Shown in pieces: positions 21 to 46,610 of a stretch of DNA of 64,000 bases (its first letter is position 1; each line of letters begins with the position of its first letter). A program made the position numbers and the translations under genes. Source of the DNA: Azoarcus sp. Lineage in GTDB: Bacteria > Pseudomonadota > Gammaproteobacteria > Burkholderiales > Rhodocyclaceae. The stretch is from positions 1 to 64,000 of the forward strand of contig JAITMK010000131.1 of the NCBI GenBank assembly GCA_031277415.1, in the 5' to 3' direction. The notes below the pieces were generated by a model. The model did not search any database, had not been told where the DNA came from, and saw only the letters and a program-made list of their open reading frames with translations.

Positions 21-115
21 TGTCATCCTGCTTGATACCGCAGGATCCACGCGGCGTCTGGATTCTGCGACTTCGCTTCGCTGCGCGCAGAATGACAGGA
101 GGGGTTTTGCAGGCT
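21..115. repeat. Interspersed palindromic repeat, family A, copy 1
   Basis: Two inverted modules in series: CATCCTG...GCAGGAT, then ATTCTGCG...CGCAGAAT, followed by GGGGTTTTGCAG. The same arrangement recurs near 4340, 12280, 28120, 41493, 43517 and 58249. It lies just past the 3' end of the membrane-protein gene that stops at 120. The short open frame across it is the repeat translated and is not a gene. Confidence 0.85.
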
Positions 116-119
116 TTCC

Positions 120-1025
120 TTAGAGATAAGGATGCCAACAATCATCGCTGGAAGAATGTTGTTTGCACAAAGGTTCGACGTATTCCAGACCCGGAAAACG
201 TTCGGCGAAGGCGTTTTTTAGCGCATTGCGCAAGGCCTTCATTTTCTTTGTGACACCTTCTGAGAAGAAAAGACTTGAATTAGAACCAACGATTTTGAAT
301 GAAACGATATTTGGTTCATGGAATGAATATATCATACTTATGTTTTCGCTCTTATCTTTATAACGCGAGCAAGTATCTGGGTTTGGTTCGTTTTCACAAG
401 TCAGCCAGTTCGATCTGCCATATCTGTCAGCCTTCGCAAACCCGTGCTTCTCGGCGACTTCTTTGATCGCAACGGCTACTGTGCTCCAATCGAGCACGGT
501 ATCAGGGTTTGTTGGGCGTATCGAGTATTGGTGGTGGGACGGCACGAAGGATGTCCCCATGATTCCGAGCAGGCTTATCCCCAGAATTGGTGCGGCTACA
601 AAACGCCTGGTCATGTACCAAGGCAGCGCGTAACGTTTGCTGTCGGCAAGGACTCGATTGCATAGAGGCATTACGCAAAGCGCCATCAAATCAGTGTAAT
701 CGACAGTCCTGCTAATTTTGTACGGGAGCAAATCGTTGGCTGTTTGGATGAAGAGGGCCGATAGCGGGCTTTTCCACCATAGAAAAACAGCAGTAATGCC
801 CAGCGTAACAGCCAACAAACGGCGCGGGAAAAGCGCCCCCAGCAGCAGGAACAGCACGGCAATCCCCGCAAAATCGGACAACTTTCCGGTAATTACATTT
901 GGATAAACCGACTTCAGCCACCAGTCGTTTATCAGTAAAGTGAGCAGCGCCAGTAGAAAGGGCCAAGTGACGGCAACGTCTAGCAGCCGATCTTGCTTCT
1001 GCTGTTTTGATTTCACTGGAATCAT
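120..1025 (-). CDS. Multi-pass membrane protein of unknown function
   Basis: About 301 residues. The N-terminal half has four or five hydrophobic segments with the motifs ITGKLSDFAG and WKSPLSALF, then TVDYTDLMAL; similar strings occur in a widespread family of uncharacterised bacterial membrane proteins, as far as I recall. The C-terminal 130 residues after a last membrane segment are soluble, probably periplasmic, with four cysteines (TCENEPNPDTCS and a CKQ..DDC tail) that could form disulfides. The open frame extends back to 1181, but that start lies inside the tRNA gene, so the ATG at 1025 (MIPVKSK) is preferred; an AGGCAAGAG stretch precedes it. Function unknown. Confidence 0.7.
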   Translation of the reverse strand: MIPVKSKQQKQDRLLDVAVTWPFLLALLTLLINDWWLKSVYPNVITGKLSDFAGIAVLFLLLGALFPRRLLAVTLGITAVFLWWKSPLSALFIQTANDLLPYKISRTVDYTDLMALCVMPLCNRVLADSKRYALPWYMTRRFVAAPILGISLLGIMGTSFVPSHHQYSIRPTNPDTVLDWSTVAVAIKEVAEKHGFAKADRYGRSNWLTCENEPNPDTCSRYKDKSENISMIYSFHEPNIVSFKIVGSNSSLFFSEGVTKKMKALRNALKNAFAERFPGLEYVEPLCKQHSSSDDCWHPYL

Positions 1026-1169
1026 GCTCTTGCCTACTGATATTTCATGAGAGAGTTTATTCTGAACTACCTTGGGAGCGGCTTCAACTCCGGGACGGAC
1101 AGTGCCATGCTCGCTCAGGTGCAGGCGTTTCATAAAAAAGGGCTGCATTGCTGCAACCCCTTGATTTTC

Positions 1170-1245
1170 TGGTAGGGGCACAAGGGCTCGAACCTTGGAC
1201 CTACGGATTAAGAGTCCGCTGCTCTACCAACTGAGCTATACCCCC
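1170..1245 (-). tRNA. tRNA-Lys (anticodon CUU)
   Basis: Read on the minus strand this 76-base stretch folds as a full cloverleaf: acceptor GGGGGTA pairing with TGCCCCT (one G-U at 1:72), D arm GCTC/GAGC with the AGTTGGTA loop, anticodon stem GCGGA/TCCGT with loop CTCTTAA, T arm with TTCGAGC. Anticodon CTT reads AAG. The CCA end is encoded in the DNA. Confidence 0.95.
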
Positions 1246-1331
1246 TGAAAGAGCTGCGAATGATAAACGATGTTGTTTTGCCCTTCAACCAAAGTGTAGA
1301 AAAGTGTAGAAAAGGAGGGTAGGGGAGGCTG

Positions 1332-1901
1332 TCAAACTCCCAAAATGCGTCCGCCGCGCTGGCGGGCGAATGGGCCGGTGAGTGCGCCCAGGCCGGTGCT
1401 GCCGTGGGCGTGGCAGATTGCGCAGGCCAGCGCATCGGCGGCATCTGCCTGTGGTTCGCCGGTGAGCGACAGCAGCCTGGCAACCATGTGCTGTACTTGC
1501 TCCTTGCTGGCTTTGCCCTGACCGACCACGGCTTGTTTGATTTGTAGCGCGGTGTATTCGGCTATCGGCAGGTCGCGGGAGACCGCGCCGCAGATGACCG
1601 CTCCGCGCGCTTGCCCAAGAAGAAGGGTGGATTGGGGATTGACGTTGACGAAAACCTTTTCGACGGCGGCAATGCCGGGGTGGTAGGTGTCGATGATTTC
1701 GTGTACGCCATCGAGAAGGGTCTTGAGGCGGTCGGGCAGGGGACGGTCACCGCCTTCGCTGGTTCGGATGCAGCCGCTGGCAACGTAGTGCAGGTGGTTG
1801 CCGGATACGTCGATGATGCCGAAACCGGTGATCCGCAGCCCTGGGTCGAGTCCGAGGATGCGGGTGAAGGCTGCGGCGGCTGGTGTGCCCGGAGTCTGCA
1901 T
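1332..1901 (-). CDS. ruvC: Crossover junction endodeoxyribonuclease RuvC
   Basis: Holliday-junction resolvase, 189 residues, the usual family length plus a short N-terminal extension. The acidic catalytic set is visible: D19 in LGLDPG, E81 in AAVEKVF, and D153/D156 in QADAADALA. It cuts four-way junctions made by recombination, normally with RuvAB. It follows yebC by 9 bases, the usual yebC-ruvC operon, but ruvA and ruvB do not follow: 86 bases downstream is the tRNA-Lys gene. The start at 1901 leaves about 15 residues before the first core strand; a strong ribosome site is not seen. Confidence 0.97.
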
Positions 1902-1910
1902 GGTGGATTC

Positions 1911-2639
1911 TTATTCGCTGTCCAGCACGGCAGAGGTGTAGACCTCCTGCACGTCGTCGAGCGCGTCGAGGGCGTCGAGCAGTTTTTGCATTCGCAGGCT
2001 GTCTTCGCCGGAGAGTTCCGTTTCGTTCAGCGGTTTCATGGTGACTTCGCCGAATTCGGGTTTGAACCCGGCAGCCTCCAGCGCCTCTCGCGCAGCGGAG
2101 AATTCCCACGGGCCGGTCATGACTTCGATGGAGCCGTCGTCGTGGGTGAGGATGTCTTCGGCTCCGGCTTCGAGCGCAGCTTCCATCAGAGCTTCTTCAT
2201 CTGTTCCGGGGGCGAAGAGCAGTTGCCCGCAGTGTTTGAACTGGAAGGCGACGCAGCCGTCCGTGCCCAGACTGCCGCCGTATTTGCTGAAGGCGTGGCG
2301 CACGTCGGCAACGGTGCGGTTTCTGCTGTCGGTGAGGCAGTCGACCATGACCGCCGCGCCCGCGATGCCGTAGCCTTCGTAGCGCACTTCTTCGTAGACG
2401 ACGCCTTCGAGTTGGCCCGTGCCGCGCTTGATGGCGTTTTCGATGGTGTCCTTGGGAACGGATTCGCCCTTGGCCTTGTCGATAGCCAGCCGCAGGCGCG
2501 GGTTGGCAGTGATGTCACTGCCGCCCATTTTGGCGGCGACGGTGATTTCCTTGATCAGTTTGGTGAAAATCTTGCCCCGTTTGGCGTCCTGGCGCCCTTT
2601 GCGGTGCTGGATATTGGCCCATTTGGAATGACCAGCCAT
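1911..2639 (-). CDS. yebC: YebC/PmpR family DNA-binding regulator
   Basis: 242 residues, standard length. It opens with [20 protein letters not shown], the family signature, and contains the [10 protein letters not shown] segment. YebC/TACO1-type proteins are DNA-binding regulators in some bacteria and translation factors for proline-rich stalls in others; which applies here cannot be told. First gene of the yebC-ruvC pair on the minus strand. Confidence 0.96.
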
Positions 2640-2817
2640 GCGTTGAACCTCTGGCGTTGTATGCGAGAAACGCTCTATTTTAGCGGCTCAGACGCCCCCT
2701 AGCCAGACGGTTTTGAATTCGTGTCACCGGTTTTGAATTCGGGTAGTTGCTGATGTCGTGGTTCGATTGCGCCAGGCAATGGGATAATGTGCGCCCGTTT
2801 CATTTTTTCTTTTTCCA

Positions 2818-3705
2818 ATGCCTGCCATTCAATGGTTTCCGGGTCACATGAATTCCGCGCGCCGCGCGTTTGCCAAGGCGCTTGCGGCAATAGACGTGGT
2901 CATCGAGGTGACGGACGCGCGCCTGCCCGGCGCAAGCAGCAATCCGATGATCGAAGAATTGCGGCACTTCCGGAATCGTCCCTGCCTGAAACTGCTCAAC
3001 AAAGCCGATCTCGCCGACCCGAAGGCGACTCGTGAGTGGATCGCGTACTACAACGCCCAGCCCGGCGTGCGGGCAATCGCCATTTCGGCGAAACATCCGG
3101 CGGATGTGGAACGCATCCCGGTACTGTCCCGGCAACTCGCGCCGCACCGTAGCGGAGCGGAAAAACCCTTGCGGATGGCGCTGGCGGGCATTCCGAACGT
3201 AGGAAAATCCACGCTGATGAACGCGCTTCTGAAACGTCGCGTGGCGAAGGTCGGCGATGAACCGGCGGTAACGAAAAGCCAGCAGACGCTCGACCTGGGG
3301 CCGGGAATGACCCTGACGGATACGCCGGGCCTGATGTGGCCGAAGATCGAACACGATGCGGACGGCTTCATGCTGGCCGCCAGCCACGCGATTGGCCGCA
3401 ATGCGGTAATCGATGAAGAAGTGGCGGTGAACCTGGGGTCGATTCTGCTGGCACGTTATCCGGCGTTCATTGAAGTTCGTTACCGGATCGATGTCACCGG
3501 GCTGGATGGGGAAGGGCTGCTGGAGCGCATCGCCCATCGGCGCGGCTGCATACGCAAGGGCGGAGGGCTCGATCTGGAAAAGGCCGCAAACGTTTTTCTT
3601 GTGGATTACCGCTCTGGAACACTGGGCCGCATCACTCTGGAAGTGCCGGAAAGCCGTCAGCAGATGTTGGCGGCAGCGGAAAGTGTGCCGGATGTTTTGA
3701 GTTAG
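2818..3705 (+). CDS. ylqF: Ribosome-assembly GTPase, RbgA/YlqF type
   Basis: 295-residue circularly permuted GTPase. The G motifs occur in the permuted order: G4 NKAD (61-64), then G1 GIPNVGKS (124-131), then G3 DTPG (168-171). The N-terminal IQWFPGHM and the IEVTDARLP segment are typical of YlqF/RbgA, which matures the large ribosomal subunit. It is transcribed divergently from yebC-ruvC across about 180 bases. Confidence 0.95.
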   Translation: MPAIQWFPGHMNSARRAFAKALAAIDVVIEVTDARLPGASSNPMIEELRHFRNRPCLKLLNKADLADPKATREWIAYYNAQPGVRAIAISAKHPADVERIPVLSRQLAPHRSGAEKPLRMALAGIPNVGKSTLMNALLKRRVAKVGDEPAVTKSQQTLDLGPGMTLTDTPGLMWPKIEHDADGFMLAASHAIGRNAVIDEEVAVNLGSILLARYPAFIEVRYRIDVTGLDGEGLLERIAHRRGCIRKGGGLDLEKAANVFLVDYRSGTLGRITLEVPESRQQMLAAAESVPDVLS

Positions 3706-3902
3706 GGGTCGATCTGCTGGCATACGCAGGCTGCATTCTATTCGCGTATTTCAGGTTTGCCTAAACCTATTAACCTGGCTCGAAGATCAAACATTTTAAA
3801 CTGCCTAACAAATTGTTTTGTATGTATTTTATACAGTAACTCTGTCTGGTTTATACGTGCCAGTTTAATAATCGAAGAGACATTCGCTGTTTCGAGCAGG
3901 GA
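3706..3902. other. AT-rich spacer without recognisable features
   Basis: Spacer between the GTPase gene and the promoter at 3903. It is visibly AT-richer than the flanking housekeeping DNA. I see no open frame with coding character and no member of the repeat families found elsewhere in the window. Confidence 0.4.
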
Positions 3903-3940
3903 TTGACAGTACTTGCAAGGTAAATGATACTGTTCTTATC
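3903..3940 (+). promoter_or_regulatory. Sigma70-type promoter, duplicated copy 1
   Basis: TTGACA (3903-3908), 17-base spacer, GATACT (3926-3931). About 70 bases around it, from roughly 3870 to 3940, are near-identical to 4600-4670 in front of the next gene. GATAC-N5-TTATC overlaps the -10 box and could be an operator. Confidence 0.6.
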
Positions 3941-4036
3941 AAGGCTGTTTATCTATATGCAGTGAGGGGGTGCAAACCTTCTACGTTAGGTATTCTGTCT
4001 TGTATATTCACCACCTCAAGCACAGGAGAATGTTTC

Positions 4037-4270
4037 ATGCGTCCAATCATTCAGAGTTTTGCTCTTGTTTTTGCAACTGGCATAGCCTTCACGCTTTCTG
4101 CCTGCTCGGAACCAACTCGTACAGTGGAGTGGTACAAAGAACATGAGAAAGAGCGCAAAGCGAAGCTCCAGGAATGCGCGAACAATCCCTCCGAACACAT
4201 GGCTACGCCCAACTGTACCAATGCAGGACTAGGAGAAATACAGGCTCTCACGGAAGCAATGAGAAAATGA
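4037..4270 (+). CDS. EexN-family lipoprotein
   Basis: 77 residues. A signal peptide ends in the lipobox LSAC (Cys24), so the mature product should be a lipid-anchored protein. The following SEPTRTVEWYKEHEKERKAK and the CANNPSEH...TPNCTNA pattern match my memory of EexN-type entry-exclusion lipoproteins of conjugative elements, although no conjugation genes are near. The ATG at 4037 has AGGAG 8 bases upstream; the longer frame from 3962 lacks a ribosome site and would bury the signal peptide. Transcribed from the 3903 promoter. Confidence 0.75.
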   Translation: MRPIIQSFALVFATGIAFTLSACSEPTRTVEWYKEHEKERKAKLQECANNPSEHMATPNCTNAGLGEIQALTEAMRK

Positions 4271-4337
4271 CCGTGGCAGCATTCGGTGAACACGGAATCA
4301 AGCCTTAGGCGTTAAGTTTCAGTACCCTATTACCCAC

Positions 4338-4563
4338 CGCTTGTCATCCTGAGCGAAGTCGCAGGATCCACGCAATGTCTGGATTCTGCGACTTCGCTTC
4401 GCTGCGCGCAGAATGACGGGGAAACGTCGGGCATGCACGGTCCCGTAGGGGCGAATAACTATTCGCCCTTGCCGCAGGTTGGATGTTGGGATTCGCTTCG
4501 CTCGTCCCAACCTACGCCCTTGCCGCAGCATTGTTGATGGGCGAATAATTATTCGCCCCTACA
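4338..4563. repeat. Compound repeat block: families A, B and H
   Basis: Family A copy 2 occupies about 4341-4418. Then a family B palindrome (GGGGCGAATAACTATTCGCC, 4445-4468), a family H stretch with GGTTGGATGTTGGGATTCGC reaching CCCAACCTACG near 4515, and a second family B palindrome (4539-4563) in opposite orientation. The two B copies bracket H, as they bracket a different filler at 40275-40341. No gene lies in 4271-4696. Confidence 0.8.
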
Positions 4564-4632
4564 CCCGGCAATTGGGGAGGGGGTTTGCAGAGAATCCCTA
4601 ATCGAAGAGGTATCCGCTGTTTTGAGTAGGAA

Positions 4633-4670
4633 TTGACTGCACTTGCGAGCCAAATGATAATGTTCTTATC
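4633..4670 (+). promoter_or_regulatory. Sigma70-type promoter, duplicated copy 2
   Basis: TTGACT (4633-4638), 17-base spacer, GATAAT (4656-4661). Near-duplicate of the element at 3903. The inverted repeat GATAA-N5-TTATC is exact here and overlaps the -10 box. Confidence 0.6.
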
Positions 4671-4696
4671 TGTTTGTCTATATGTGGTTATAACTT

Positions 4697-5101
4697 ATGA
4701 AACCTTTATCGAAATTTGCCATATCCGTCGGCATATTTACTATCATAGGACCACTGGTTGGAAATGCTGTTTTAGGACTTTGGCTCGCGCTCGAAGGCGG
4801 ATTCGCGGAACTGCCTTCTGTGTTCGTCCTCACCTTGGGTCTCGCATATTTCTCCGGTATTTTGCCTGCGTGCACAGCAGGCATTTTGTTTGGCGCAATC
4901 ATCAACAAATACAATCTGCGTTCAGTTCCATCTATCATAATTGGACTCATGGCCGGAGCCGCCACTACAGCCCTTATCTCTTCCCTTCTGTACGAGGGGA
5001 TTTCTTCTAGAGAGGAAATGAATTTGCTGGTTTCGATTGGTGCCATCAGCGGGGCTATTTGCGGACTTATCGTATGGCGGATTGTTAGAGAGGTGGCCTG
5101 A
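4697..5101 (+). CDS. Small four-helix membrane protein, unknown
   Basis: 134 residues, almost entirely hydrophobic, with four predicted membrane spans (about 8-32, 42-70, 80-98, 108-128) separated by short polar loops and ending in WRIVREVA. The glycine- and alanine-rich helices (GLMAGAATTALIS, IGAISGAICGL) suggest tight packing. No family recognised. It is expressed from the second copy of the duplicated promoter at 4633. The ATG at 4697 lies in a weak ribosome-site context. Confidence 0.6.
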   Translation: MKPLSKFAISVGIFTIIGPLVGNAVLGLWLALEGGFAELPSVFVLTLGLAYFSGILPACTAGILFGAIINKYNLRSVPSIIIGLMAGAATTALISSLLYEGISSREEMNLLVSIGAISGAICGLIVWRIVREVA

Positions 5102-5180
5102 ATGTAATTAGCGATCAAGTCGCCATATTCGCGTTCAAACACATGTATTTTAGTGTCTTACACCGCATTTGGAAGGTCGC

Positions 5181-5363
5181 ATGAAAAAGTTATTTGTAAT
5201 AATTGCAGTTAGCTTTGTTGTGTTTTCCATTACAGGCGGCATGCCGGGTGGTATGGGAGGGGCGCAGTCTGCAAGGACTGCCCCTATCTCGATCATGAAC
5301 GTTAGGCTATATTGCCCCTCTCAAGCAGTTTGCCTGCATGTACGTAAATTTTTAGGAGAGTAA
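5181..5363 (+). CDS. Putative exported 60-residue peptide
   Basis: Starts MKKLFVIIAVSFVVFSITGG, a convincing Sec signal core, then a glycine/methionine stretch (GGMPGGMGGAQS) and a short tail with two cysteines. GGAAGG lies 5 bases before the ATG at 5181. The stop TAA touches the next start. No homologue recognised; the tail may be a decayed remnant of something longer. Confidence 0.4.
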   Translation: MKKLFVIIAVSFVVFSITGGMPGGMGGAQSARTAPISIMNVRLYCPSQAVCLHVRKFLGE

Positions 5364-5365
5364 TG

Positions 5366-6046
5366 ATGCGTAAATCACGTCTTGCACCAGCAGTTTTGAC
5401 ATTTTTAGGGCTGACTCGACGGGCAGAATCTCAAGAAACAATTGCTACTCGTGAACAAGCTCTGACTTTTGAAGTCGAGAAGCTTTTCTACACACCGGAA
5501 AATGTTAGGGTATTGTCAAAATTATGTAGTGTATTAGAAATTAATTGTGGCGAAATAGCTAATAAAGGTAGATTTCGGCTTATTCAGTCCCAAATACGTG
5601 TGGAGCAGATAGAAGAGGAAGTTGCACGAATAGACAAGGAAGTTGCACGGATAGACATGGAAGTTGCGCGAATAGAAAGGAAAGTGGCATGGGCGGATAA
5701 GAAAATAGCATGGATCAATAGGGAGGTAGTGCAGATAGAAGAGGAAGAAGCGCGGATAGAAAAAGAAGTAGCACGGATAGAAAATGAAGCCACACAGATG
5801 GATGAGGAAGCAGTACGGATATATAAGGAGGCAGCACTGATATATGAGGAAGGAGCATGGATAAAGAATGACGCAGCACAGATAACAAGGGAAGGAGCAC
5901 AGATATATGAAGAATCAGCACGGATACATGATGAAGGAGCACGGATATATGATGAAGGAGCACGGATACATGAGGAAGCAGCACGGATATATGGGGAAGT
6001 AAAACGATTAGAGGCTGAGACTGATGCTATTGGAAAGCCTGATTAA
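5366..6046 (+). CDS. Heptad-repeat coiled-coil protein, unknown
   Basis: 226 residues. After a basic, mildly hydrophobic N terminus and an approximately 50-residue segment with two cysteines (KLCSVLEINCG), residues 79-218 are 20 consecutive heptads of the form VARIDKE with no break in register: small or beta-branched residue at a, Ile at d, Glu mostly at g. Early heptads are rich in D/E/K, later ones in Y/H (AARIYGE, SARIHDE). This predicts one long parallel coiled coil of about 20 nm. ATA is used for nearly every Ile of the repeat, unlike the neighbouring housekeeping genes. AGGAG is 7 bases before the ATG at 5366; an ATG at 5363 is also possible. Function unknown. Confidence 0.75.
   Translation: MRKSRLAPAVLTFLGLTRRAESQETIATREQALTFEVEKLFYTPENVRVLSKLCSVLEINCGEIANKGRFRLIQSQIRVEQIEEEVARIDKEVARIDMEVARIERKVAWADKKIAWINREVVQIEEEEARIEKEVARIENEATQMDEEAVRIYKEAALIYEEGAWIKNDAAQITREGAQIYEESARIHDEGARIYDEGARIHEEAARIYGEVKRLEAETDAIGKPD
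5600..6019 (+). repeat. 21-bp imperfect tandem repeat, 20 units, coding
   Basis: Direct DNA counterpart of the heptads: units like GTTGCACGAATAGACAAGGA plus one base, exactly 21 bases each for 420 bases, diverged mostly by substitutions that keep the a and d positions. No indels break the period. Confidence 0.9.
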
Positions 6047-6062
6047 CACCTGATTTCTGCTA

Positions 6063-6285
6063 AGGCGATTGTACCTATATGTCATACTTGTTTTGTTCCC
6101 GCGCGCTTTCCCATTCCGTCATTCCCGCGTGTTCCCCGCTCAGGATCACTGCGGGGACAAGCTTTGGCGGGAATTCAGCGTTTTTTGCAATTCAATCAAC
6201 ACGGCCCTTTTTGCCTCATGCTTTGGATTGTTTGTCGTCGCGAGGTGTTTGCTGTCAAAGGTAAAGACGCTGGATTCCCGTTCAC
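6063..6285 (-). repeat. Dispersed repeat family F, copy 1 (inverted)
   Basis: Reverse complement closely matches 43918-44107 and, in part, 44983-45081. Shared landmarks are GGAATCCAGCGTCTTTACC, TCGCGACGACAAACA, CACGCGGGAATGACGGA and a terminal GGTACAATCGCC. This copy has extra sequence in the middle. It fills the gap between the coiled-coil gene and the macroglobulin gene. At 6292-6335 follows a separate GGGGCGGCA/TGCCGCCC hairpin. Confidence 0.8.
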
Positions 6286-6342
6286 ATGCCCGCCCATAGG
6301 GGCGGCAATCTGCCGCCCGTCCAATTCTCCTTTTTTTCAACG

Positions 6343-9300
6343 CTATTTGGCCTCTATCTCAATTTTTTCGCCGCTTACCCAATGCTTGTGCTCGTCAAGG
6401 TAGAAGGCGTAGGCCCGCGAGGCCGATCCGGTATAGATGCCGGGTATGTTGGCCGTAAACGGTATGCTCAAGTCTACTTCGGTGTTGCCTTTCATTACTC
6501 GCCAGTACAGCACCAGTTCGCGCCCGATTATTTCGTAAGACGCAATCTGCCCGGCGCTTGCCAATTCTTTAAGGCGTTCGTGCCGAGGTTCAAGACCGGC
6601 GGGCATGCCGATTACGGCAAGAGGCATTGAAGTGTCGGTCTTGGCTTCTACTCTGACCTTGAGGTCCACCAGTTCCCCTTCCTTCACTTTTGAAGAGGAG
6701 AGCCTGGTAGAAAGTAGCAGCGGACATTCGTCGCTGCTGGCAGGCTGTGGGGTGTTGTAGGTTACGGTTACGACAAAGGGCATATCGGCCCCGTCTTCCA
6801 TGGCCAGTTCAATCCTGTGCTCGCCCGAAGTCATGGCCGCGCTGAAATCCGGCAGTACGATGGCGCTCTTGGAGTCTTTGTCGAAGGCAATCGGGTTGCC
6901 AAAAGGCTTGCCGTTGATTTTGAGTTGCGCTTTCCCCGGAGCTTTGGGCTTGCTGCGGGCGGCATCGTAGGCGTTGATAGCTTTGAGAACCAAGATTGTG
7001 GACTGGGTGCTGCCAAAGCGCCCGGCTTTGCAGTTTTCAAACAGCCAACTCATGGCCTGTTCAACCGCACCAGCGAACTCATCGCCAAGACGCAGCCAGG
7101 AAATTATGGCCAACGAGGTGGTTTCTATTTTGAGGGCGTCGCCGCCGGAACGGGTGATGGAGGTTTCAGCGCCGGTCAGATAGCCGTCCTTGTTCTGGGC
7201 CGTCTGCATCTTTTTGGCAGCAGCGAGGGCCGCCTCTTTTTCGCCCGCGAGATACATGATGTTTGCGCCAAGAGCCAGCAGGTACGGGTCTTTCGTTTCG
7301 CCCAGCAGCTTTTTGGCGGCGTTTATTTCAGCCTTGAGTTCGGATGGGTTTTCGCCGGATTCCAACAGAGTCCAGAGGATGTATAAATTGGTGAGCGGAA
7401 CCGGGGCTGCGCCAAAGGAGTCGAGGGCCCTGGTGTTGCGTTCGAATCCACCCTTGCCGTCGCGACGAGCCATGAGCCAGTTGCGGGTGCGCTCCACCAT
7501 GGCGCTGTCAACGGCCATTACCTTTTTCATTTCAGTAAACTGCATGAGGCCGTAAGCGGTCAAGGCTTCATGCCCCGGATTGTCGCCAAACCATTCATAG
7601 CCCCTGTCTTTGGACTCAAAGCCGATAAGGCGTTTGTAGCTTTCGTCCAAAAGTTTCTCGGCATTCTTGATTTTTTCGGGCGAAACACCGGGATGGCTCA
7701 GGAAATATTGCTGGGCCATTACCAGCGGAAAGCTGGTGGAACTGGTCTGTTCGAAGCAGCCGTAGGGGCTGCGCAAAAGCGCATTCAAGGCTTCTTCCAG
7801 GTTGGCCAACGGAGTGGGATAGATTTTGGCCTCGGCACGCATGCTGCCAGGCACGATTTCGCTGGCGATGGTGAAAGACCGGCCAAAAGGTTTGGTCGGC
7901 CCAAGCATGCCGGAAGCGTCCAGCTGCACCGGGAACCCACGGGGCAAAACCTTTATGGGACGGGTTACCGAGTCGGTATAGCCGCCAGCCGTTGCGTTGA
8001 GAGTGAGGAGGTATTGGGCGACAACGTCCGGTTCAAGGACAAGCAGCGCGCGAGAACGCGATCCGGCGGATAGTGTCTTGGGCATGGCTGAAATTGCGCC
8101 GGGTTTCAGACCTTCGGCTCGCGCCAGAATGGCTGGCTTGTCAAGCGCATGGGGCATGGAGTTGACAAGGGCTACGGGAAGATTTATCCGGTCGCCGGTT
8201 ACGACTTCGGGCGGAAACTTGGGCTCGATGTAGAAAGGTTCAAGAGATGCGATTTCGTGTGTGGTCTCGCCCAGGGCGCCATTGTTGCCAAAGGCGTCGG
8301 CCCGCAGACGGAAGGAGGTGACGCTGTCGGAAAGATCAAACTCCACGGTGGCCAGGCCATCCCGGGGGTTGGTGCGTATTCCGGCATTCCAGTACAAGGT
8401 TTCGGTGAAATCCACCCGGTCGTTGGGGCGGCGGTCTGGGCGCGCCTTGTGCGCGTATTCGCGCACGTATACGTCATACTGCCGTATCCGCGCCCGCGCA
8501 AATGGCTCCTCTATAATCGCCGCCATTGGCAGTGCCTCTGCCGCCGGCGCTGGCGCCGGCTTCGCTATTTCTTCCTGTACGGGTGGCATGTCCTGCAACG
8601 GTTCTGGCGACGGTAACGGTTCCGGCTGTTGCGCCGCTCCGTCCTGAGCGCCCTCCATGGCGAGTTCCGCCAAGTTCTGGAAGAGAAAATCCTCGTCCTT
8701 CGGGGCAGCCATCCGGCGTATAAATCTGAATTCGCCCATGCCTGCCGCCATCGGCATCTGATCAGGGGCAGGGGCAACTATGGCAAGGGCGCGGCGTACG
8801 TCTTCCGGGTTGTTTTTCAGGGCGTCGTCGAGGCGGGAGAGAACAAAACGCCGCCAGCCCTGCGTGCCCAGCAGCAGGTCGACCTGGCGGGCTGCTTCGG
8901 GGTTTTTGGGGTCGAAATACACATGCGCGTCGGCAAGGTCTTTCACTTCATTTTCAAGGTAGACCATCACCGGCAGACTGGGCGCCTGATCGCGTTTTTC
9001 GACCATCTCCAGCACAGCGTCGTCGGTCAGGACAAGACCCACCACGGCTTCCACCGGGTTGTTTTTTTCGTCTTTGGTCTCGATTTTCAGGCGCACTTTG
9101 CTTCCGGGCGTGGGCGACGACCCGGCGGGAATGGTTTCGACGCCAACGCCGATTTGCACTTTGAATTTTGGCTCGCGGAATACCAGGCGCTCGGCCAGCG
9201 GCTTGCCGGATTTGTTCCAGACAGTAGCAATGAGCACGCCTTCGACATCGTCGGGTTTCAGGCTTACTTCGTTTTGTCCGGCCTTGAGTTTGGCTTGAGC

Positions 9301-10452
9301 GACGAGCCGTTCGCGATGATATAGAGTGATCCAGGCTGCATCGGAATCTTCCGTGGCCCTGACATCCAGTTTTATTTCATCCTCGAAAGCATACGATGGC
9401 TTATGGGCTTTGATGGCAACCCCGGAGTCGGTGACCTCTGGCAACGGAAAAATACGGGTGATGCCCGAAGGCTTGAGCAGGCGCAGGGCATAGCGCCCTT
9501 TGGCCTGTGGGGTAAATTCCATGATGCCCCGGCCTTCATGAGTGGTGGTCAGCCTGGCCGCAGGCTCTGAAGATGCACGTGATGCACGCGGGGCAGGGTT
9601 GTTGTTTTTGTCCAGCAGGATGATTTCACCCTCCAGATCGGCGGGTTTTCCGTCCGGACGCAGGGCTTGCACATAGACGCGGCCAGGCAGGCCGGCTACC
9701 AGTTCGCCCCCTTCGGGATAAAACGCGATATCAAGGGTTTGCAGCAGAATAGGGATGGTTTTTGTGGCGGTTTCCACCACGCCGCCGTCTTCAATCATGA
9801 AGGCCAGCGTGCCTTCGCCACGCTCTATGTTTTTGGGCAATTTGAAGGAAACCTTGGCGTTGCCTTCCTTGTCCAGAGATAATTTCACACGCGCAACCTC
9901 GGCCTCGTCAACGCGGGCAATCGCCGTTACACGCGCCTTTTCCGGCACGCCGCCCTCGGCCCTTTTTACGTTTACGACGGCTGCGACTTCATCGCCCGGG
10001 CCGTAGCCCTCTCGCATGAACTCGATTTGCGATTTCAGCCGAGGCGGATTGTAGACCCGTACCTCAAAGGATCGCTCGGCCTTCATGAAGCCATCTACAG
10101 TGACCGAAGCCTTGTAACGACCGCCGGGCGTGCCATGCGGAATGTCCCAGGTAAAACCTGTGGTGCTGTTCTGGGTAGGAGCCCAGGTTGTGAAAAGTTC
10201 ATCATAACGGGGCCCGGTAACAGTAAGCTCGACACCACTGTTGTCTTGCATGGGGAAGAAGGTGTCGGAGCGGAGCATTACGGCGCGGGCGTAAATGGTT
10301 TCACCCGGCTTATAGATGGGTTTGTCGGTTGAAAGCAGAAGCAGAAAGCGTTCTTTTCCACCAAGGCGTTCGGGGGTCGGAACAGAAAATTCCGGGGCTC
10401 CGGCAGGGAGCGTTTTTCCAAAGATTGTTGTCGACATAAGGGCTATGCACAC
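6343..10452 (-). CDS. Alpha-2-macroglobulin family protein, thioester type
   Basis: 1369 residues in frame. N-terminal MG2 module with STDKPIYKPGETIYARA, several further beta-sandwich modules, a Pro/Glu/Ala-rich linker at about 600-645, and an alpha/alpha-barrel complement-like domain carrying CFEQ (Cys899-Gln902), the intact thioester motif; so this is a covalent protease trap rather than a thioester-less type. Bacterial homologues guard the periplasm against foreign proteases and are often encoded beside penicillin-binding protein 1C; no pbpC is present here. The frame opens at a GTG without ribosome site and lacks a proper signal, because the true 5' end appears to be one base out of frame (see 10453-10526). 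Confidence 0.93.
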   Translation of the reverse strand: MCIALMSTTIFGKTLPAGAPEFSVPTPERLGGKERFLLLLSTDKPIYKPGETIYARAVMLRSDTFFPMQDNSGVELTVTGPRYDELFTTWAPTQNSTTGFTWDIPHGTPGGRYKASVTVDGFMKAERSFEVRVYNPPRLKSQIEFMREGYGPGDEVAAVVNVKRAEGGVPEKARVTAIARVDEAEVARVKLSLDKEGNAKVSFKLPKNIERGEGTLAFMIEDGGVVETATKTIPILLQTLDIAFYPEGGELVAGLPGRVYVQALRPDGKPADLEGEIILLDKNNNPAPRASRASSEPAARLTTTHEGRGIMEFTPQAKGRYALRLLKPSGITRIFPLPEVTDSGVAIKAHKPSYAFEDEIKLDVRATEDSDAAWITLYHRERLVAQAKLKAGQNEVSLKPDDVEGVLIATVWNKSGKPLAERLVFREPKFKVQIGVGVETIPAGSSPTPGSKVRLKIETKDEKNNPVEAVVGLVLTDDAVLEMVEKRDQAPSLPVMVYLENEVKDLADAHVYFDPKNPEAARQVDLLLGTQGWRRFVLSRLDDALKNNPEDVRRALAIVAPAPDQMPMAAGMGEFRFIRRMAAPKDEDFLFQNLAELAMEGAQDGAAQQPEPLPSPEPLQDMPPVQEEIAKPAPAPAAEALPMAAIIEEPFARARIRQYDVYVREYAHKARPDRRPNDRVDFTETLYWNAGIRTNPRDGLATVEFDLSDSVTSFRLRADAFGNNGALGETTHEIASLEPFYIEPKFPPEVVTGDRINLPVALVNSMPHALDKPAILARAEGLKPGAISAMPKTLSAGSRSRALLVLEPDVVAQYLLTLNATAGGYTDSVTRPIKVLPRGFPVQLDASGMLGPTKPFGRSFTIASEIVPGSMRAEAKIYPTPLANLEEALNALLRSPYGCFEQTSSTSFPLVMAQQYFLSHPGVSPEKIKNAEKLLDESYKRLIGFESKDRGYEWFGDNPGHEALTAYGLMQFTEMKKVMAVDSAMVERTRNWLMARRDGKGGFERNTRALDSFGAAPVPLTNLYILWTLLESGENPSELKAEINAAKKLLGETKDPYLLALGANIMYLAGEKEAALAAAKKMQTAQNKDGYLTGAETSITRSGGDALKIETTSLAIISWLRLGDEFAGAVEQAMSWLFENCKAGRFGSTQSTILVLKAINAYDAARSKPKAPGKAQLKINGKPFGNPIAFDKDSKSAIVLPDFSAAMTSGEHRIELAMEDGADMPFVVTVTYNTPQPASSDECPLLLSTRLSSSKVKEGELVDLKVRVEAKTDTSMPLAVIGMPAGLEPRHERLKELASAGQIASYEIIGRELVLYWRVMKGNTEVDLSIPFTANIPGIYTGSASRAYAFYLDEHKHWVSGEKIEIEAK

Positions 10453-10526
10453 ATGTATGAGGATGACGGCGCCTGTCGCGAGGATCGTCGAGAGGCCTAC
10501 TTTTTTGGAGCAGGAATGTCTACCAT
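10453..10526 (-). other. Probable frameshifted 5' end of the macroglobulin gene
   Basis: GGAG then 5 bases then ATG at 10526 opens MVDIPAPKK followed by a stop. The macroglobulin frame, read upstream of its GTG, encodes VGLSTILATGAVILIHVC, an excellent signal or anchor segment. The two frames meet at a run of six A (minus strand) at 10501-10506. One extra A would join them into a normal secreted start. Confidence 0.75.
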
Positions 10527-10579
10527 GCCAACTCCGGCTGGAATGATATTACCATGTATTTAGTTTCCGAATGCCATAT

Positions 10580-10710
10580 TTTTTGAGTCACCCCTACCTG
10601 AAGGCAGGGGATTCCTCGATACGATCTTGGGGCGCCTTCGGCGCCAAGTGATACTTTGTCTCGCGCAATCTCCGCCATAAATGGCGGAGATTGCGCGAGA
10701 CGCGTGTTCA
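10580..10710. repeat. Three-hairpin repeat, family D, copy 1
   Basis: Modules in order: GAGTCACCCCTACCTGAAGG with its partner CAGGGG; GGGCGCCTTCGGCGCC; and a 19-bp perfect stem (10659-10677 with 10682-10700) closed by a TAAA loop. A second full copy lies at 24438-24568 and the first hairpin alone at 46570-46610. The first hairpin resembles ends of IS200/IS605-type elements from memory. Confidence 0.8.
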
Positions 10711-10768
10711 AATACGGGTTCAGACACCTGAACAGTCCATGCTTCCTGGTTTACCTGAAACCGTTTCC

Positions 10769-10846
10769 GTAGAGGCGACCTGTGGTCGCCCGGTGAATTG
10801 CGTGAATGAATGTGCAATGTATCGGGCGACCACAGGTCGCCCCTAC
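10769..10846. repeat. Palindromic repeat family C, copy 1
   Basis: GTAGAGGCGACCTGTGGTCG ... CGACCACAGGTCGCCCCTAC: two inverted hairpins around a GTGAATTGCGTGAATGAATG spacer. Related copies at 12378-12418 (left half) and 28224-28328. The remaining 200 bases to the next gene hold nothing recognisable. Confidence 0.8.
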
Positions 10847-11047
10847 CTCGCAGGTATGTCCCGCTCCGGCAGACGGAGGTGGTATTCTTTGCGGGTCGCG
10901 CGTTCGGTTGAATTTATGTCCGGTTTCACCAAGCATCCTGACAACATGTTCAACCTCGCTCGCAGGGCATCTCAAGGCTACACTTTGGGATGCCGGTTAA
11001 CATAAACGTTGGACCTCACTCCTGCCCACTGTCAAAAGGAACTTATC

Positions 11048-11542
11048 ATGAAGTTTTGCAAAGCTCTCATAGTCCTCTTTGCCCTAAGCATCGCTTATAT
11101 CCCGGCCAAGGCGGAAGAACTAACGCCCGAAAAGCGCGCAGACATCGAGCAACTCTTGACGATGACCGGTGCTTTGTCGCTCGGAAAACAGATGAGCGAC
11201 ATGGTTGTAAGCAACATGATACAAACCCTGAAAGAAGTCCGTCCCGACATTCCTGAAAAAGCACTTAACGTTCTGCCTGCGGAAATCGCAGCGGTCTTCG
11301 ATGAAAATATGGGCGCTTTAATGGAACTGACCATCCCCCTCTATCACAAATACTTTACCGCCGCCGAAGTGAAGGAGATGATTCGTTTTTATTCAACCGA
11401 TCTTGGGAAAAAAACGATCAGGCTAATGCCCGCCCTCATGCAAGAAGCCATGGTTGTCGGGCAGCAATGGGGTAAATCGTTTGCACCACAGCTCAATCAG
11501 CGAATCATGGAGAAACTTAAACAGCAAGGAATAAATCTCTGA
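11048..11542 (+). CDS. Exported DUF2059-domain protein
   Basis: 164 residues with a Sec signal (MKFCKALIVLFALSIAYIPA, cleavage likely after AKA). The body is all-helical, with the IPLYHKYFTAAEVKEMIRFY stretch and FYSTDLGKKTIRLMP typical of DUF2059 proteins. These are periplasmic proteins of unknown role. The ATG at 11048 follows AAAAGGAACTTATC. It is followed 35 bases later by a second, diverged DUF2059 gene. Confidence 0.85.
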   Translation: MKFCKALIVLFALSIAYIPAKAEELTPEKRADIEQLLTMTGALSLGKQMSDMVVSNMIQTLKEVRPDIPEKALNVLPAEIAAVFDENMGALMELTIPLYHKYFTAAEVKEMIRFYSTDLGKKTIRLMPALMQEAMVVGQQWGKSFAPQLNQRIMEKLKQQGINL

Positions 11543-11577
11543 TCCGGACGTTCACTCACTCCATAATGGGAAGCTCC

Positions 11578-12246
11578 ATGAAGCAAGCATTCGTTCGCCG
11601 CGCTGCCCTCGCCTTGATGATTGCTGTACTGGGCGCGGGTTGTGCATCGGTTACTGAAACTGAAGATGCCTTGGTAGTACCAGGTAGCAAGGAAGCAGCA
11701 AGTAGCGAAGAAGTAATAAAACAACTGTTAGTACTCACCAAGAGCAGGGATTTAGTAGCCGAAGCACATGATCAGATGAGATTCATGGTGCGTGTGAACA
11801 TGCAGCAGGTGCGGGCAGGACAGATTCTGGATGCCAGGCAACAAAAGGTCATAGAGGATATGGAGAACAAAATGCTGGCCCTTATTCAAAAGGAATTTTC
11901 CTGGGAGAGGCAGGAGGCACTCCACATTCGCCTGTACCAAGAAACATTCAGCAAAAAGGAACTGGATGGGTTGTTGAGCTTCTACAAGACAGCTACTGGG
12001 CAAGCCATCGCAAATAAGTTTCCGTTACTTACACGGAAGACGATGCTTCAGGCACGAGAGATCCAGCACGGCGTGCAAATTGGAGCGTCAAAAATTATGC
12101 AGGAGTCCTATTCTGAATTCATGGGCGCAGGTCACACAGGCATCCCGACAACGCCAGGCATCCCTTCAGAATGTCAAGTGGATTCAGACTGTGGGCAAGG
12201 GAAAAGTTGCCGGAACCGTATAGGGGGAGGAAATGAATGCCGGTAG
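11578..12246 (+). CDS. DUF2059-like lipoprotein with cysteine-rich tail
   Basis: 222 residues. Lipobox LGAGC (Cys22) predicts a lipid anchor. The central part keeps the DUF2059 core (IRLYQETFSKKELDGLLSFY, KTATGQAIANKFPLL) and is paralogous to the gene before it. It differs by a C-terminal extension after a Gly/Pro/Thr linker, with cysteines in the pattern C-x5-DC-x4-KSC...C, which looks like a small disulfide-knotted module. ATG at 11578 with GGAAG 5 bases upstream is preferred over the ATG at 11566. Confidence 0.8.
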   Translation: MKQAFVRRAALALMIAVLGAGCASVTETEDALVVPGSKEAASSEEVIKQLLVLTKSRDLVAEAHDQMRFMVRVNMQQVRAGQILDARQQKVIEDMENKMLALIQKEFSWERQEALHIRLYQETFSKKELDGLLSFYKTATGQAIANKFPLLTRKTMLQAREIQHGVQIGASKIMQESYSEFMGAGHTGIPTTPGIPSECQVDSDCGQGKSCRNRIGGGNECR

Positions 12247-12278
12247 GGAACCCCTGCATTACCTTATAACCCACCACC

Positions 12279-12418
12279 TGTCATCCTGCTTGATACCGCA
12301 GGATCCATGCAACGTCTGGATTCTGCGACTTCGCTTCGCTGCGCGCAGAATGACGGGAGGGGTTTTGCAGGGATTCCGTAGGGGCGACCTGTGGTCGCCC
12401 GGTGAATTGCGTGAAATG
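12279..12418. repeat. Families A (copy 3) and C (half copy) in tandem
   Basis: Family A from 12279 to about 12370 ends in GGGGTTTTGCAGGGATTCC and runs directly into the left arm of family C (GTAGGGGCGACCTGTGGTCG, from 12378). It sits between convergent genes. Confidence 0.8.
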
Positions 12419-43683: not shown

Positions 43684-43880
43684 GGATTCTTTGCGAAACC
43701 CTCTCCCGCCCCTTCGGGGCACCCTCTCCCGCTTGCGGGAGAGGGTAATTGCTGAAAGAACGCCGCGAAATGCTGTAAAGGATGGCGGGTTGGGTGTAGG
43801 TTGGGTTGAGCTTCGCGAAACCCAACGTTTTTGTGGTCGGTTGGATGTTGGGATTCGCTTCGCTCATCCCAACCTACGCG
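43684..43880. repeat. Families E (double) and H
   Basis: From 43684 a variant tag (GGATTCTTTGCGAAACCC), two nested CCCTCTCCCGC hairpins (43699-43747) around CCCCTTCGGGG, then family H with GGGTTGAGCTTCGCGAAACC and GATGTTGGGATTCGCTTCGC (43795-43878). No gene between the tamA stop and 44011. Confidence 0.75.
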
Positions 43881-43917: not shown

Positions 43918-44107
43918 GCGGGAATCCAGCGTCTTTACCTTTGACAGCAAACGCCTCGCGACGACAAACAGTCCAAAGCATGTGAGGTAAAAAGAGTCAT
44001 GCTGATTGGATTACAAAAGACGCTGGATTCCCGCAAAAAACACGCGGGAATGACGGAGTGGGAAAGTGCACGGGGGGAAAAAAATATGATATATAGGTGC
44101 AATCGCC
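43918..44107 (+). repeat. Dispersed repeat family F, copy 2
   Basis: Starts GCGGGAATCCAGCGTCTTTA and ends AGGTGCAATCGCC; close match to the reverse complement of 6063-6285. Its right half (44011-44107) is read on the minus strand as the C-terminal tail of the paralogue at 44011-44505. Confidence 0.8.
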
Positions 44108-44505
44108 CAGCTCCAACTTATTGGAAATTCCAATGGTTTGGTTTTATGCCCAAAGCTTTCTGCGCTCTCCTTCTTGTCGACAATCTCAACCTTTCCGCCC
44201 GCGCCGATCCTGACTGTGTAGTCCACATAATCTATCCGACCCTCCTGCAAAAGCTTCACCTTGTAATTCCAGGTCGTGGTTTCTTCAATCGAACCGATCC
44301 CGCCGCCGCCACGTGGGCGGTAAGTTTTATCCACGTCGGCAAGGATGGCCTGATAGATGCAGATCGACTGTTTTATTGCATCATCGTTGCACCTCATCGG
44401 TTTTTTTGCATACGCCGAGTTCATCGGCAAGCATGCCAAGACCGCCCCCAAGGCCAATATTGCAACAGAAGCCGCGCCCCACGATGGTTTCGCCTGTTTC
44501 TTCAT
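44011..44505 (-). CDS. Exported small protein, paralogue 1 of 3
   Basis: 164 residues. Signal peptide MKKQAKPSWGAASVAILALG with cleavage likely after SAYA, then KKPMRCNDDAIKQSICIYQA, ILADVDKTYRPRGGGGIGSI and a beta-rich part (YKVKLLQEGRIDYVDYTVRI, GGKVEIVDKKES). Two cysteines in the mature N-terminal helix. The last 40 residues (from LEFPISWSWAIAP) are translated from dispersed repeat F. Very close to the genes at 44585 and 44985. Probably periplasmic; no family recognised. Confidence 0.7.
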   Translation of the reverse strand: MKKQAKPSWGAASVAILALGAVLACLPMNSAYAKKPMRCNDDAIKQSICIYQAILADVDKTYRPRGGGGIGSIEETTTWNYKVKLLQEGRIDYVDYTVRIGAGGKVEIVDKKESAESFGHKTKPLEFPISWSWAIAPIYHIFFPPCTFPLRHSRVFFAGIQRLL

Positions 44506-44584
44506 TTAATACCTCTTCGCTGCGGTCGTATGGTAGAGGCGGGCGTTCCGGCCTTCATTTGTAGCAGTACGCCGTATCCGACGA

Positions 44585-44980
44585 TTACCGCCTTATTGGA
44601 GGCCCCAATGGTGTGTGTGGAGGCCCATGGCTTTCCGTGCTCTCCTTCTTGCCGACGATCTTAACCTTTCCTCCAGCGCCAATCCTGACTGTGTAGTCAA
44701 TGTGATCTGTTCGACCCTCCTGCAAGATCTTCACCTTGTAATCCCAGGTCGAGGTTCCTTTAATCGAACCGATCCCGCCGCCGCCGCGCATGGGGTAAGT
44801 TTTATCCACATCGGCAAGGATGGCCTGATAGATACAGACCGACTGTTTTATTGCATCATCGTTGCACCTCATCGGTTTTTTTGCATACGCTGAGTTCATC
44901 GGCAAGCATGCCAAGACCGCCCCCAAGGCCAATATTGCAACAGAAGCCGCGCCCCACGATGGTTTCGCCTGTTTCTTCAT
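44585..44980 (-). CDS. Exported small protein, paralogue 2 of 3
   Basis: 131 residues. Same signal peptide and body as its neighbours (KKPMRCNDDAIKQSVCIYQA, DKTYPMRGGGGIGSIKGTST) but ends in HGPPHTPLGPPIRR without the repeat-derived tail, so this is likely the ancestral length. The frame is open to 45076 through repeat F; ATG at 44980 is chosen because it matches the paralogues. Unlike them it lacks the GAGG-TATT leader, repeat F having replaced it. Confidence 0.7.
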   Translation of the reverse strand: MKKQAKPSWGAASVAILALGAVLACLPMNSAYAKKPMRCNDDAIKQSVCIYQAILADVDKTYPMRGGGGIGSIKGTSTWDYKVKILQEGRTDHIDYTVRIGAGGKVKIVGKKESTESHGPPHTPLGPPIRR

Positions 44981-44982
44981 CG

Positions 44983-45081
44983 GATTACAAAAGACGCAGG
45001 ATATCCGCCAAAAACACGCGGGAATGACGGAGTGGGAAAGTGCACGGGGGGAAAAAAATATGATATATAGGTGCAATCGCC
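44983..45081 (+). repeat. Dispersed repeat family F, copy 3 (partial)
   Basis: Right half of family F only: GGATTACAAAAGACGCAGGA to GTGCAATCGCC. It lies between paralogues 2 and 3 and encodes the tail of paralogue 3. Confidence 0.8.
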
Positions 45082-45479
45082 CAACTCCAACTTATTGGAA
45101 ATTCCAATGGTGTGTGTGGGGGGCCATGGCTTTTTGTGCTCTTCTTTTTGTCAACGATCTCAACCTTTCCGCCCGCGCCAATCCTGACTGTGTAGTCTAT
45201 GTGATCTGTTCGACCCTCCTGAAAGACCCTTACTTTGTAAGCCATGGTCGTGGTTTCTGTGATCGAACCGATCCCACCGCCGCCACGTGGGCGGTAAGTT
45301 TTATCCACGTCGGCAAGGATGGCCTGATAGATGCAGATCGACTGTTTTATTGCATCATCGTTGCACCTCATCGGTTTTTTTGCATACGCCGAACTCATCG
45401 GCAAGCATGCCAAGACCGCTCCCAAGGCCAATATTGCAACAGAAGCCGCGGCCCACGATGGTTTCGCCTGTTTTTTCAT
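44985..45479 (-). CDS. Exported small protein, paralogue 3 of 3
   Basis: 164 residues. Same architecture as paralogue 1, including the repeat-F tail (LEFPISWSWAIAP...), with changes such as TETTTMAYKVRVFQEGRTDH. The ATG at 45479 is 2 bases after the stop of the metalloprotease, with GAGG in the protease's last codons as ribosome site, so protease and this protein are translated from one message. Confidence 0.75.
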   Translation of the reverse strand: MKKQAKPSWAAASVAILALGAVLACLPMSSAYAKKPMRCNDDAIKQSICIYQAILADVDKTYRPRGGGGIGSITETTTMAYKVRVFQEGRTDHIDYTVRIGAGGKVEIVDKKKSTKSHGPPHTPLEFPISWSWAIAPIYHIFFPPCTFPLRHSRVFLADILRLL

Positions 45480-45481
45480 TT

Positions 45482-46384
45482 TTAAATACCTCTTCGCTGC
45501 GGTCGTATGGTGGAGGCGGGCGTTCCGGCCTTCATTTCTGCCTCGGTTCTCGGATAGTGCCGCTGCATCTTCGCCGACCACACCGATGACAATGATGTAA
45601 TGGGCGTACCCAGGAGAGACCGTGCATGGCTGGCAGAACTCAACGCCGACAGCACTTTCGAAAACATTTCCTCCCGCGCGAAATGGCGCAACGACTCGCG
45701 CCAAGGATAGGCATGTTCAGACCGAAGCTGCATTCCAAAACCCATTACCGACTGCATGTCGTGATCAGAGACGCCATAGCATACATCGGCACTTGTGTCG
45801 CCCGATGCCGGGCAATGGGGTTTGCCGACATCGACGTGATCGAGGCCGAGCAGATGACCGACTTCGTGCACATGGGCGCGCTGCATCACTTTTTTGCCCG
45901 TGGAGGTTGTTTCTTTATGGATGCTGTCCATGTCCTTGCTGTCATAAAGCGTGTCATGTGAGCCAAACCAGTTCACACTGGGATCGAGGCGCACAACATC
46001 GATTGTGCGATGATTACCGGGCGTTGTCGCCTCGTTGCCGACAAGTTTCAAGCGGCACCAGACATTCGGAAAATAGATGACTCCCTGGTGCTTGTAGGGA
46101 AAGCTGAATGAATCGTTGATCAGCCAAAACTTGCCCGTCCAAAACGACTGGGCGGAGGAGACGAATCTCGCTTTCCAACTCGACCAGGCGGCGGGGTTCC
46201 ATCTGATAATCTTGCGCGGTTGCCCATCAGCGTCATGATACGTCCCGGTATTGACGCCGCCAGCGGGATTGATCTGCCGGAACCCCAGACGAAGCGTCAG
46301 CGTCAATTCCGCATTGCTGTACGGGTTGCAACAATCAGTGTTCAGTTCCGCATCGAATTTTGGGAAGGTCATCGTTTTCTTCAT
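45482..46384 (-). CDS. Metzincin-type zinc metalloprotease, no signal peptide
   Basis: 300 residues. Zinc motif HEVGHLLGLDH (173-183) of the HExxHxxGxxH type and a Met-turn SVMGFG (Met214): a metzincin. The N-terminal 170 residues (AELTLTLRLGFRQINPAGG, WSSWKARFVSSAQSFWTGKF) form a beta-rich part of the fold typical of reprolysin/matrixin-like cores. The protein has no signal peptide or membrane segment, and CC at 18-19. ATG at 46384 with AGGAG about 8 bases upstream; the longer frame to 46492 has no ribosome site. First gene of a run with three exported paralogues. Confidence 0.82.
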   Translation of the reverse strand: MKKTMTFPKFDAELNTDCCNPYSNAELTLTLRLGFRQINPAGGVNTGTYHDADGQPRKIIRWNPAAWSSWKARFVSSAQSFWTGKFWLINDSFSFPYKHQGVIYFPNVWCRLKLVGNEATTPGNHRTIDVVRLDPSVNWFGSHDTLYDSKDMDSIHKETTSTGKKVMQRAHVHEVGHLLGLDHVDVGKPHCPASGDTSADVCYGVSDHDMQSVMGFGMQLRSEHAYPWRESLRHFAREEMFSKVLSALSSASHARSLLGTPITSLSSVWSAKMQRHYPRTEAEMKAGTPASTIRPQRRGI

Positions 46385-46518: not shown

Positions 46519-46610
46519 CCCTCTCCCGCTTGCGGGAGAGGGTGCCCCGAAGGGGTCCCAAGACTGTATCGTGGAATCTCCTGCCTTCAGGCAGGGGTGA
46601 CTCAAAACCG
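46519..46610. repeat. Family E and a partial family D hairpin
   Basis: CCCTCTCCCGCTTGCGGGAG (46519-46543) followed by GTGCCCCGAAGGGGTCCC, then the inverted first hairpin of family D (CTCCTGCCTTCAGGCAGGGG to CTCAAAACCGG). This is the divergent gap between the metalloprotease and yceD. Confidence 0.75.

What the first reader, a model, noticed from the sequence alone, without database searches (positions are those of the whole stretch)
44011..46384. Signal-less metzincin followed by three tandem exported paralogues: possible effector/immunity or protease/inhibitor module
Seen: a 300-residue metzincin (HEVGHLLGLDH, Met-turn SVMGFG) with no signal peptide; its stop is 2 bases from the start of an exported small protein, and two more near-identical copies follow on the same strand. 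Known: antibacterial effectors delivered by type VI or contact-dependent systems often lack signal peptides and are followed by one or more tandem immunity genes whose products are exported to the periplasm. Inference: the small proteins protect the cell's own periplasm from the protease, and gene multiplication broadens protection. No VgrG, PAAR or Hcp gene is in the window, so delivery is unproven; a secreted protease with inhibitors, or protease with substrates, are alternatives.
Basis: partly seen in the sequence, partly recalled or inferred. Interest (0 to 1): 0.72.

Follow-up and report, generated by a model that had tools for sequence, protein, structure and literature searches.

The report
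Predicted type VI protease toxin with antidote
This looks like a bacterial weapon-and-antidote gene set: a protein-cutting toxin probably injected into neighbouring cells by a type VI secretion machine, followed by a small exported protein (three copies here) that probably protects the producer; neither protein belongs to any family in the libraries searched.

Summary
A 300-aa metzincin without a signal peptide (45482-46384, -) ends 2 bases before a small exported protein, and two paralogues follow (82-87% identical). The same genome holds a second module (protease, A, B). The third paralogue is the relic of a duplicated module: the last 18 codons of a protease remain in front of it. So the native unit here is protease + A + B; relatives have a single small gene.

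The gene pair is conserved. All eight closer protease relatives outside this genome (Alphaproteobacteria) have the small gene directly downstream.

The missing delivery link was found. All 13 genomes with a protease homologue carry T6SS TssB, against 24-29% of background genomes; in one the module lies inside a T6SS gene cluster. The small protein is predicted as a helix plus four-stranded sheet, possibly cystatin-like.

Best explanation: a T6SS-delivered, periplasm-acting metzincin with a periplasmic immunity/inhibitor protein. Toxicity, delivery and binding are untested. It works like the VgrG2b/Tpe1 pairs but differs in protease class and immunity family: a new variant of a known kind.

The parts
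45482..46384 (-). Signal-less metzincin (300 aa), predicted T6SS effector; HEVGHLLGLDH zinc site at residues 173-183, Met-turn SVMG at 212-215
   Evidence: ORF and sequence; sub-threshold matrixin/metzincin Pfam hits; zinc-site His, Glu and Met-turn residues invariant in 12 homologues; no signal peptide, no RTX
44985..45479 (-). Small exported protein A1 (164 aa), predicted immunity/inhibitor; starts 2 bases after the protease stop
   Evidence: homologue directly downstream of the protease in 8 other genomes
44585..44980 (-). Small exported protein B (131 aa), paralogue without the repeat-encoded tail
   Evidence: AF2 core pLDDT about 90
44011..44505 (-). Small exported protein A2 (164 aa), paralogue left by a second module
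44508..44561 (-). Remnant: last 18 codons of a second protease gene, directly before A2
   Evidence: tblastn-type hit, 94% identity to protease residues 283-300; DNA repeat D3, 92%
44988..45107 (-). C-terminal tail of A1 encoded by a dispersed repeat, absent from B and from homologues outside this genome
   Evidence: (C8 hit to this part only)
44014..44133 (-). C-terminal tail of A2, same dispersed repeat

Best explanation
An antibacterial type VI secretion effector-immunity module. The signal-less metzincin is made in the cytoplasm and, by inference, loaded on the T6SS and injected into the periplasm of neighbouring cells, where it cuts envelope proteins. The small Sec-exported protein waits in the producer's own periplasm and, by inference, binds and blocks the protease, so sister cells survive. 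Shown: gene order and tight spacing, the metzincin motif, no signal peptide on the protease and one on the small protein, conserved pairing between the window's genome and Alphaproteobacteria, TssB in every carrier genome, one copy inside a T6SS cluster. Inferred: T6SS loading, periplasmic site of action, proteolytic toxicity, inhibition by direct binding, and any role of the conserved Gly-rich loop.
For: Pair conserved in the window's genome (two modules) and 8 other genomes. Small protein in 4 of 285 genomes, all 4 protease carriers. TssB in 13/13 carriers against 57/200 and 72/298 background; Fisher p 1.7e-4 for the six carriers inside that second sample. In G671 the protease lies next to ClpV in a T6SS cluster with TssA, TssB, TssC, TssF, TssG, TssK, TssL, TssM, FHA and TagF genes on the same contig. 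Gene-spike VgrG/PF04717 in 4/4 tested carriers. Conserved cysteines in both proteins fit an extracytoplasmic place of action. Precedent: VgrG2b/PA0261 and Tpe1/Tpi1, periplasm-acting T6SS metallopeptidases with periplasm-exposed immunity proteins (PMC6899460).
Against: No experiment. Most modules are not beside T6SS genes; the G671 location is one case. The four most distant homologue carriers (G593, G611, G236, G358) have no such small gene next to the protease. The T6SS association is not corrected for relatedness of the genomes. No recognised T6SS loading domain (MIX, PAAR, VgrG or Hcp fusion) was reported by Pfam on the protease. The window's genome also has a second contractile-injection-like spike gene (C90), so T6SS is not its only candidate route.
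Confidence: 0.75

Rival explanations
1. A secreted protease with a co-encoded periplasmic inhibitor that protects the producer during its own export, as in AprA/AprI (type I secretion) or Mep72/BamI. The small protein is a safety device rather than immunity against sister cells.
For: Metzincin plus small exported partner is exactly that gene logic; Mep72 is toxic to E. coli and relieved by its co-transcribed partner BamI, with which it forms a complex (PMC4334185).
Against: No Sec signal on the protease, no RTX repeats, no serralysin C-terminal or AprI-type Pfam match, no type I exporter among the neighbours scanned; does not explain TssB in 13/13 carriers and the copy inside a T6SS cluster.
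Confidence: 0.12
2. The protease is delivered by another contractile injection system (extracellular type, eCIS) or targets eukaryotic cells, with the small protein a by-stander or chaperone-like partner.
For: The window's genome has a second spike gene outside the T6SS set on C90; the most distant homologues have no small gene beside them, as would be expected of anti-eukaryotic effectors.
Against: The three other carriers tested had a single PF04717 gene each, and in two of them it lies within about 11 kb of TssB. A signal peptide on a conserved partner points to self-protection in the periplasm.
Confidence: 0.08
3. A housekeeping protease-substrate or protease-activator pair unrelated to conflict, spread with no link to T6SS.
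For: Several modules sit at a stable chromosomal place near maeB or mutS in Rhodobacteraceae, and function is untested.
Against: Sporadic distribution, 1 of 200 in the window's family and 8 of 397 around Tabrizicola; small gene never found alone; T6SS association.
Confidence: 0.05

Closest known systems
VgrG2b C-terminal domain / PA0261 and Tpe1/Tpi1 (T6SS metallopeptidase effector-immunity pairs; PMC6899460)
   Same: Zinc metallopeptidase followed by a small gene whose product is exported; homologues also occur as stand-alone cargo; T6SS linked; expected to act in the periplasm.
   Different: VgrG2b is thermolysin-like with a HEXXH motif; this is a metzincin (HExxHxxGxxH plus Met-turn). No sequence match to VgrG2b among PDB hits. 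No match of the small protein to any family or PDB chain.
AprA/AprI (serralysin with periplasmic inhibitor; own knowledge, cited in PMC4334185)
   Same: Metzincin without a Sec signal, plus a small exported inhibitor.
   Different: No RTX repeats, no serralysin C-terminal domain, no AprI-family match, no type I genes among the neighbours scanned.
Mep72/BamI of Pseudomonas aeruginosa (PMC4334185)
   Same: Metzincin co-encoded with a small partner that relieves its toxicity in E. coli.
   Different: Mep72 has a Sec signal and two carbohydrate-binding modules and is 599 residues; BamI lies upstream and is predicted partly unfolded; no T6SS link.

Membership tests
T6SS effector-immunity pair (functional class) | Effector and immunity genes adjacent and co-inherited | tested here: met
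T6SS effector-immunity pair (functional class) | Carrier genomes encode a T6SS | tested here: met
   TssB 13/13; background 24-29%
T6SS effector-immunity pair (functional class) | T6SS-dependent export, toxicity to susceptible cells, neutralisation by the immunity protein | not testable with these tools
   needs experiment
T6SS effector-immunity pair (functional class) | Recognisable loading element (VgrG, PAAR, Hcp fusion or MIX domain) | tested here: not met
   no such Pfam match on three homologues or the window protease; many cargo effectors lack one, so this is not an essential feature
Tpe/VgrG2b metallopeptidase effector family | Thermolysin-like fold, homologous to VgrG2b C-terminal domain | tested here: not met
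   metzincin motif; PDB profile hits are metzincins around the zinc site only, no VgrG2b
Metzincin superfamily | HExxHxxGxxH plus Met-turn downstream | tested here: met
   invariant H173, E174, H177, G180, H183 and M214; three-dimensional fold not confirmed, model failed
Serralysin (M10B) with AprI inhibitor | RTX repeats and C-terminal M10 domain for type I export; AprI-family inhibitor | tested here: not met
Cystatin-like fold (small protein) | Helix packed on a four-stranded antiparallel sheet | tested here: inconclusive
   AF2 core pLDDT about 90, one helix plus four strands; best PDB match a designed cystatin fold, E 0.015, TM 0.66 by target length; nothing below E 0.001

The most novel reading that the evidence does not exclude
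A previously undescribed family of metzincin T6SS effectors neutralised by cystatin-like periplasmic inhibitors whose conserved Gly-rich loop (RGGGGI in most members) reaches into the protease cleft: a proteinaceous metzincin inhibitor of a new kind, found in Rhodobacteraceae, Reyranella and the window's lineage.
Probability: 0.3. Interest if true: 0.7.

Novelty: new variant of a known kind. Interest (0 to 1): 0.58.

Why it matters
If true, it adds the metzincin class to antibacterial T6SS effectors, gives a directly testable effector-immunity pair for Rhodobacteraceae and related bacteria, and names a small family of likely natural metalloprotease inhibitors that has no match in Pfam, NCBIfam or PDB sequences.

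Tried and rejected
AF2 model of the protease failed with 4 sequences (pLDDT 31); no complex model was attempted, because only single chains can be predicted here. No relatives in viral contigs, phages or plasmids. Weak hits in G013 and G184 were not counted: their frames carry stops, and ORFs at the G013 place show no such protease. AprA/AprI-type export rejected for lack of RTX, type I genes nearby and an AprI match. Anti-phage library: no match. Lipoprotein anchoring of the small protein was considered and dropped, because the cysteine in the signal region is not conserved. Laying the whole genome in the Python box was not possible, so own-genome work used searches and stretches. Three literature searches found no description of a metzincin T6SS effector, but most subscription papers are not held.

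Full report
Observation. The protease stop TAA is followed by AA and then the ATG of the first small gene. The protease has HEVGHLLGLDH and SVMGFG, no hydrophobic N-terminus and a ribosome site upstream. Pfam and NCBIfam give only sub-threshold hits to matrixin and other metzincins over the zinc motif, and nothing for the small proteins. The small proteins are 82-87% identical to each other.

Origin of the array. The window's genome carries a second module on contig C170: protease (87% identical), then A and B. In the window, the last 18 codons of a protease lie directly before the third small gene (repeat D3). The array is thus protease-A1-B-(deleted protease)-A2. A-type proteins carry a 35-40 residue tail that looks like a translated dispersed repeat: the same stretch is read elsewhere in the genome (C8), its core motif recurs in the window, and no homologue outside the genome has it. 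All copies show dN/dS below 1, mostly 0.3-0.6 for mature cores and 0.48 for the proteases.

Conservation of the pair. A scan of a collection of 85,462 species found three protease relatives (Reyranella, Tabrizicola, a Rhodobacteraceae MAG; 58-67% identity), each with one exported homologue of the small protein directly downstream. A profile search of 397 genomes around Tabrizicola found eight carriers including Tabrizicola itself. G711, G978, G960, G853 and G671 also have the small gene directly downstream; G593 and G611 have more distant proteases without it. Within the window's own family only this genome of 200 has the pair; two genomes of the order, G236 and G358, have distant, solitary proteases. 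The small-protein profile found 4 of 285 genomes, all protease carriers (only the best 15 candidates per genome were scored, so a weak relative could be missed). Invariant in the small protein: Cys39, Cys49, two glycines of the Gly-rich loop, Glu88, Tyr96.

Delivery. TssB (PF05591) is in 4/4 and 9/9 carrier genomes, distant-homologue carriers included. Background is 57/200 in the window's family and 72/298 in Tabrizicola's. Fisher p is 1.7e-4 for the six carriers inside the second sample, not corrected for relatedness. In G671 the protease runs across the two ends of a 77.8-kb contig with its halves in register, so the contig looks circular. Beside the protease lie an unknown 284-aa gene, ClpV, TssG, TssF, TssC, TssB, TssA and FHA genes; TssK, TssL, TssM, TagF and a kinase gene are on the same contig. 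The window's genome itself has TssB and TssC on C85, a VgrG on C143 beside a gyrB/parE-type gene, and a separate spike gene on C90.

Structure. The AF2 model of paralogue B is good in the core (pLDDT about 90): one helix and four strands. The best PDB match is a designed cystatin fold (E 0.015), suggestive but below significance, and the fold is common. The protease model failed. Its profile matches metzincins in the PDB only around the zinc motif.

Mechanism. By analogy with VgrG2b/PA0261 (PMC6899460), the protease would be injected into the periplasm of neighbours and the small protein would neutralise it in the producer. The compartment logic fits: a signal-less effector, an exported partner, and conserved cysteines in both. 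Direct binding and the loop-in-cleft idea are inference. Mep72/BamI (PMC4334185) shows that a metzincin can be toxic to E. coli and be relieved by a small partner without T6SS; this is the main rival logic.

Verdict. The 'multiplication broadens protection' part is at least partly explained by module duplication and loss. The pair fails membership in the Tpe/VgrG2b and serralysin/AprI families but works like the former.

Noticed in passing
window 43709-43745 and 46519-46555: A 37-nt inverted repeat (95% complementary, 2773 nt apart) flanks the whole module; similar palindromic repeats occur elsewhere in the window, so it may be a dispersed repeat rather than a mobile-element end.
   Followed up: no
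L070 (G000:C90), 2674-12374: Own genome has a gene set with a PF04717 spike gene and phage-tail-like neighbours without T6SS TssB, possibly an extracellular contractile injection system.
   Followed up: partly
L071 (G000:C143), 55-5270: An orphan 940-aa VgrG follows a gyrB/parE-type gene; the second metzincin module on C170 lies just upstream of a parC-type gene (L019 8717-11017).
   Followed up: no
L054, 6178-7101 and 9427-10443: G593 has two distant homologues of the protease about 2.3 kb apart, and a third weaker hit about 100 kb away, without the small gene.
   Followed up: no
L067, 618-1469: A 284-aa protein without a Pfam match lies between ClpV and the protease in the G671 T6SS cluster; possible adaptor, not tested.
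   Followed up: no
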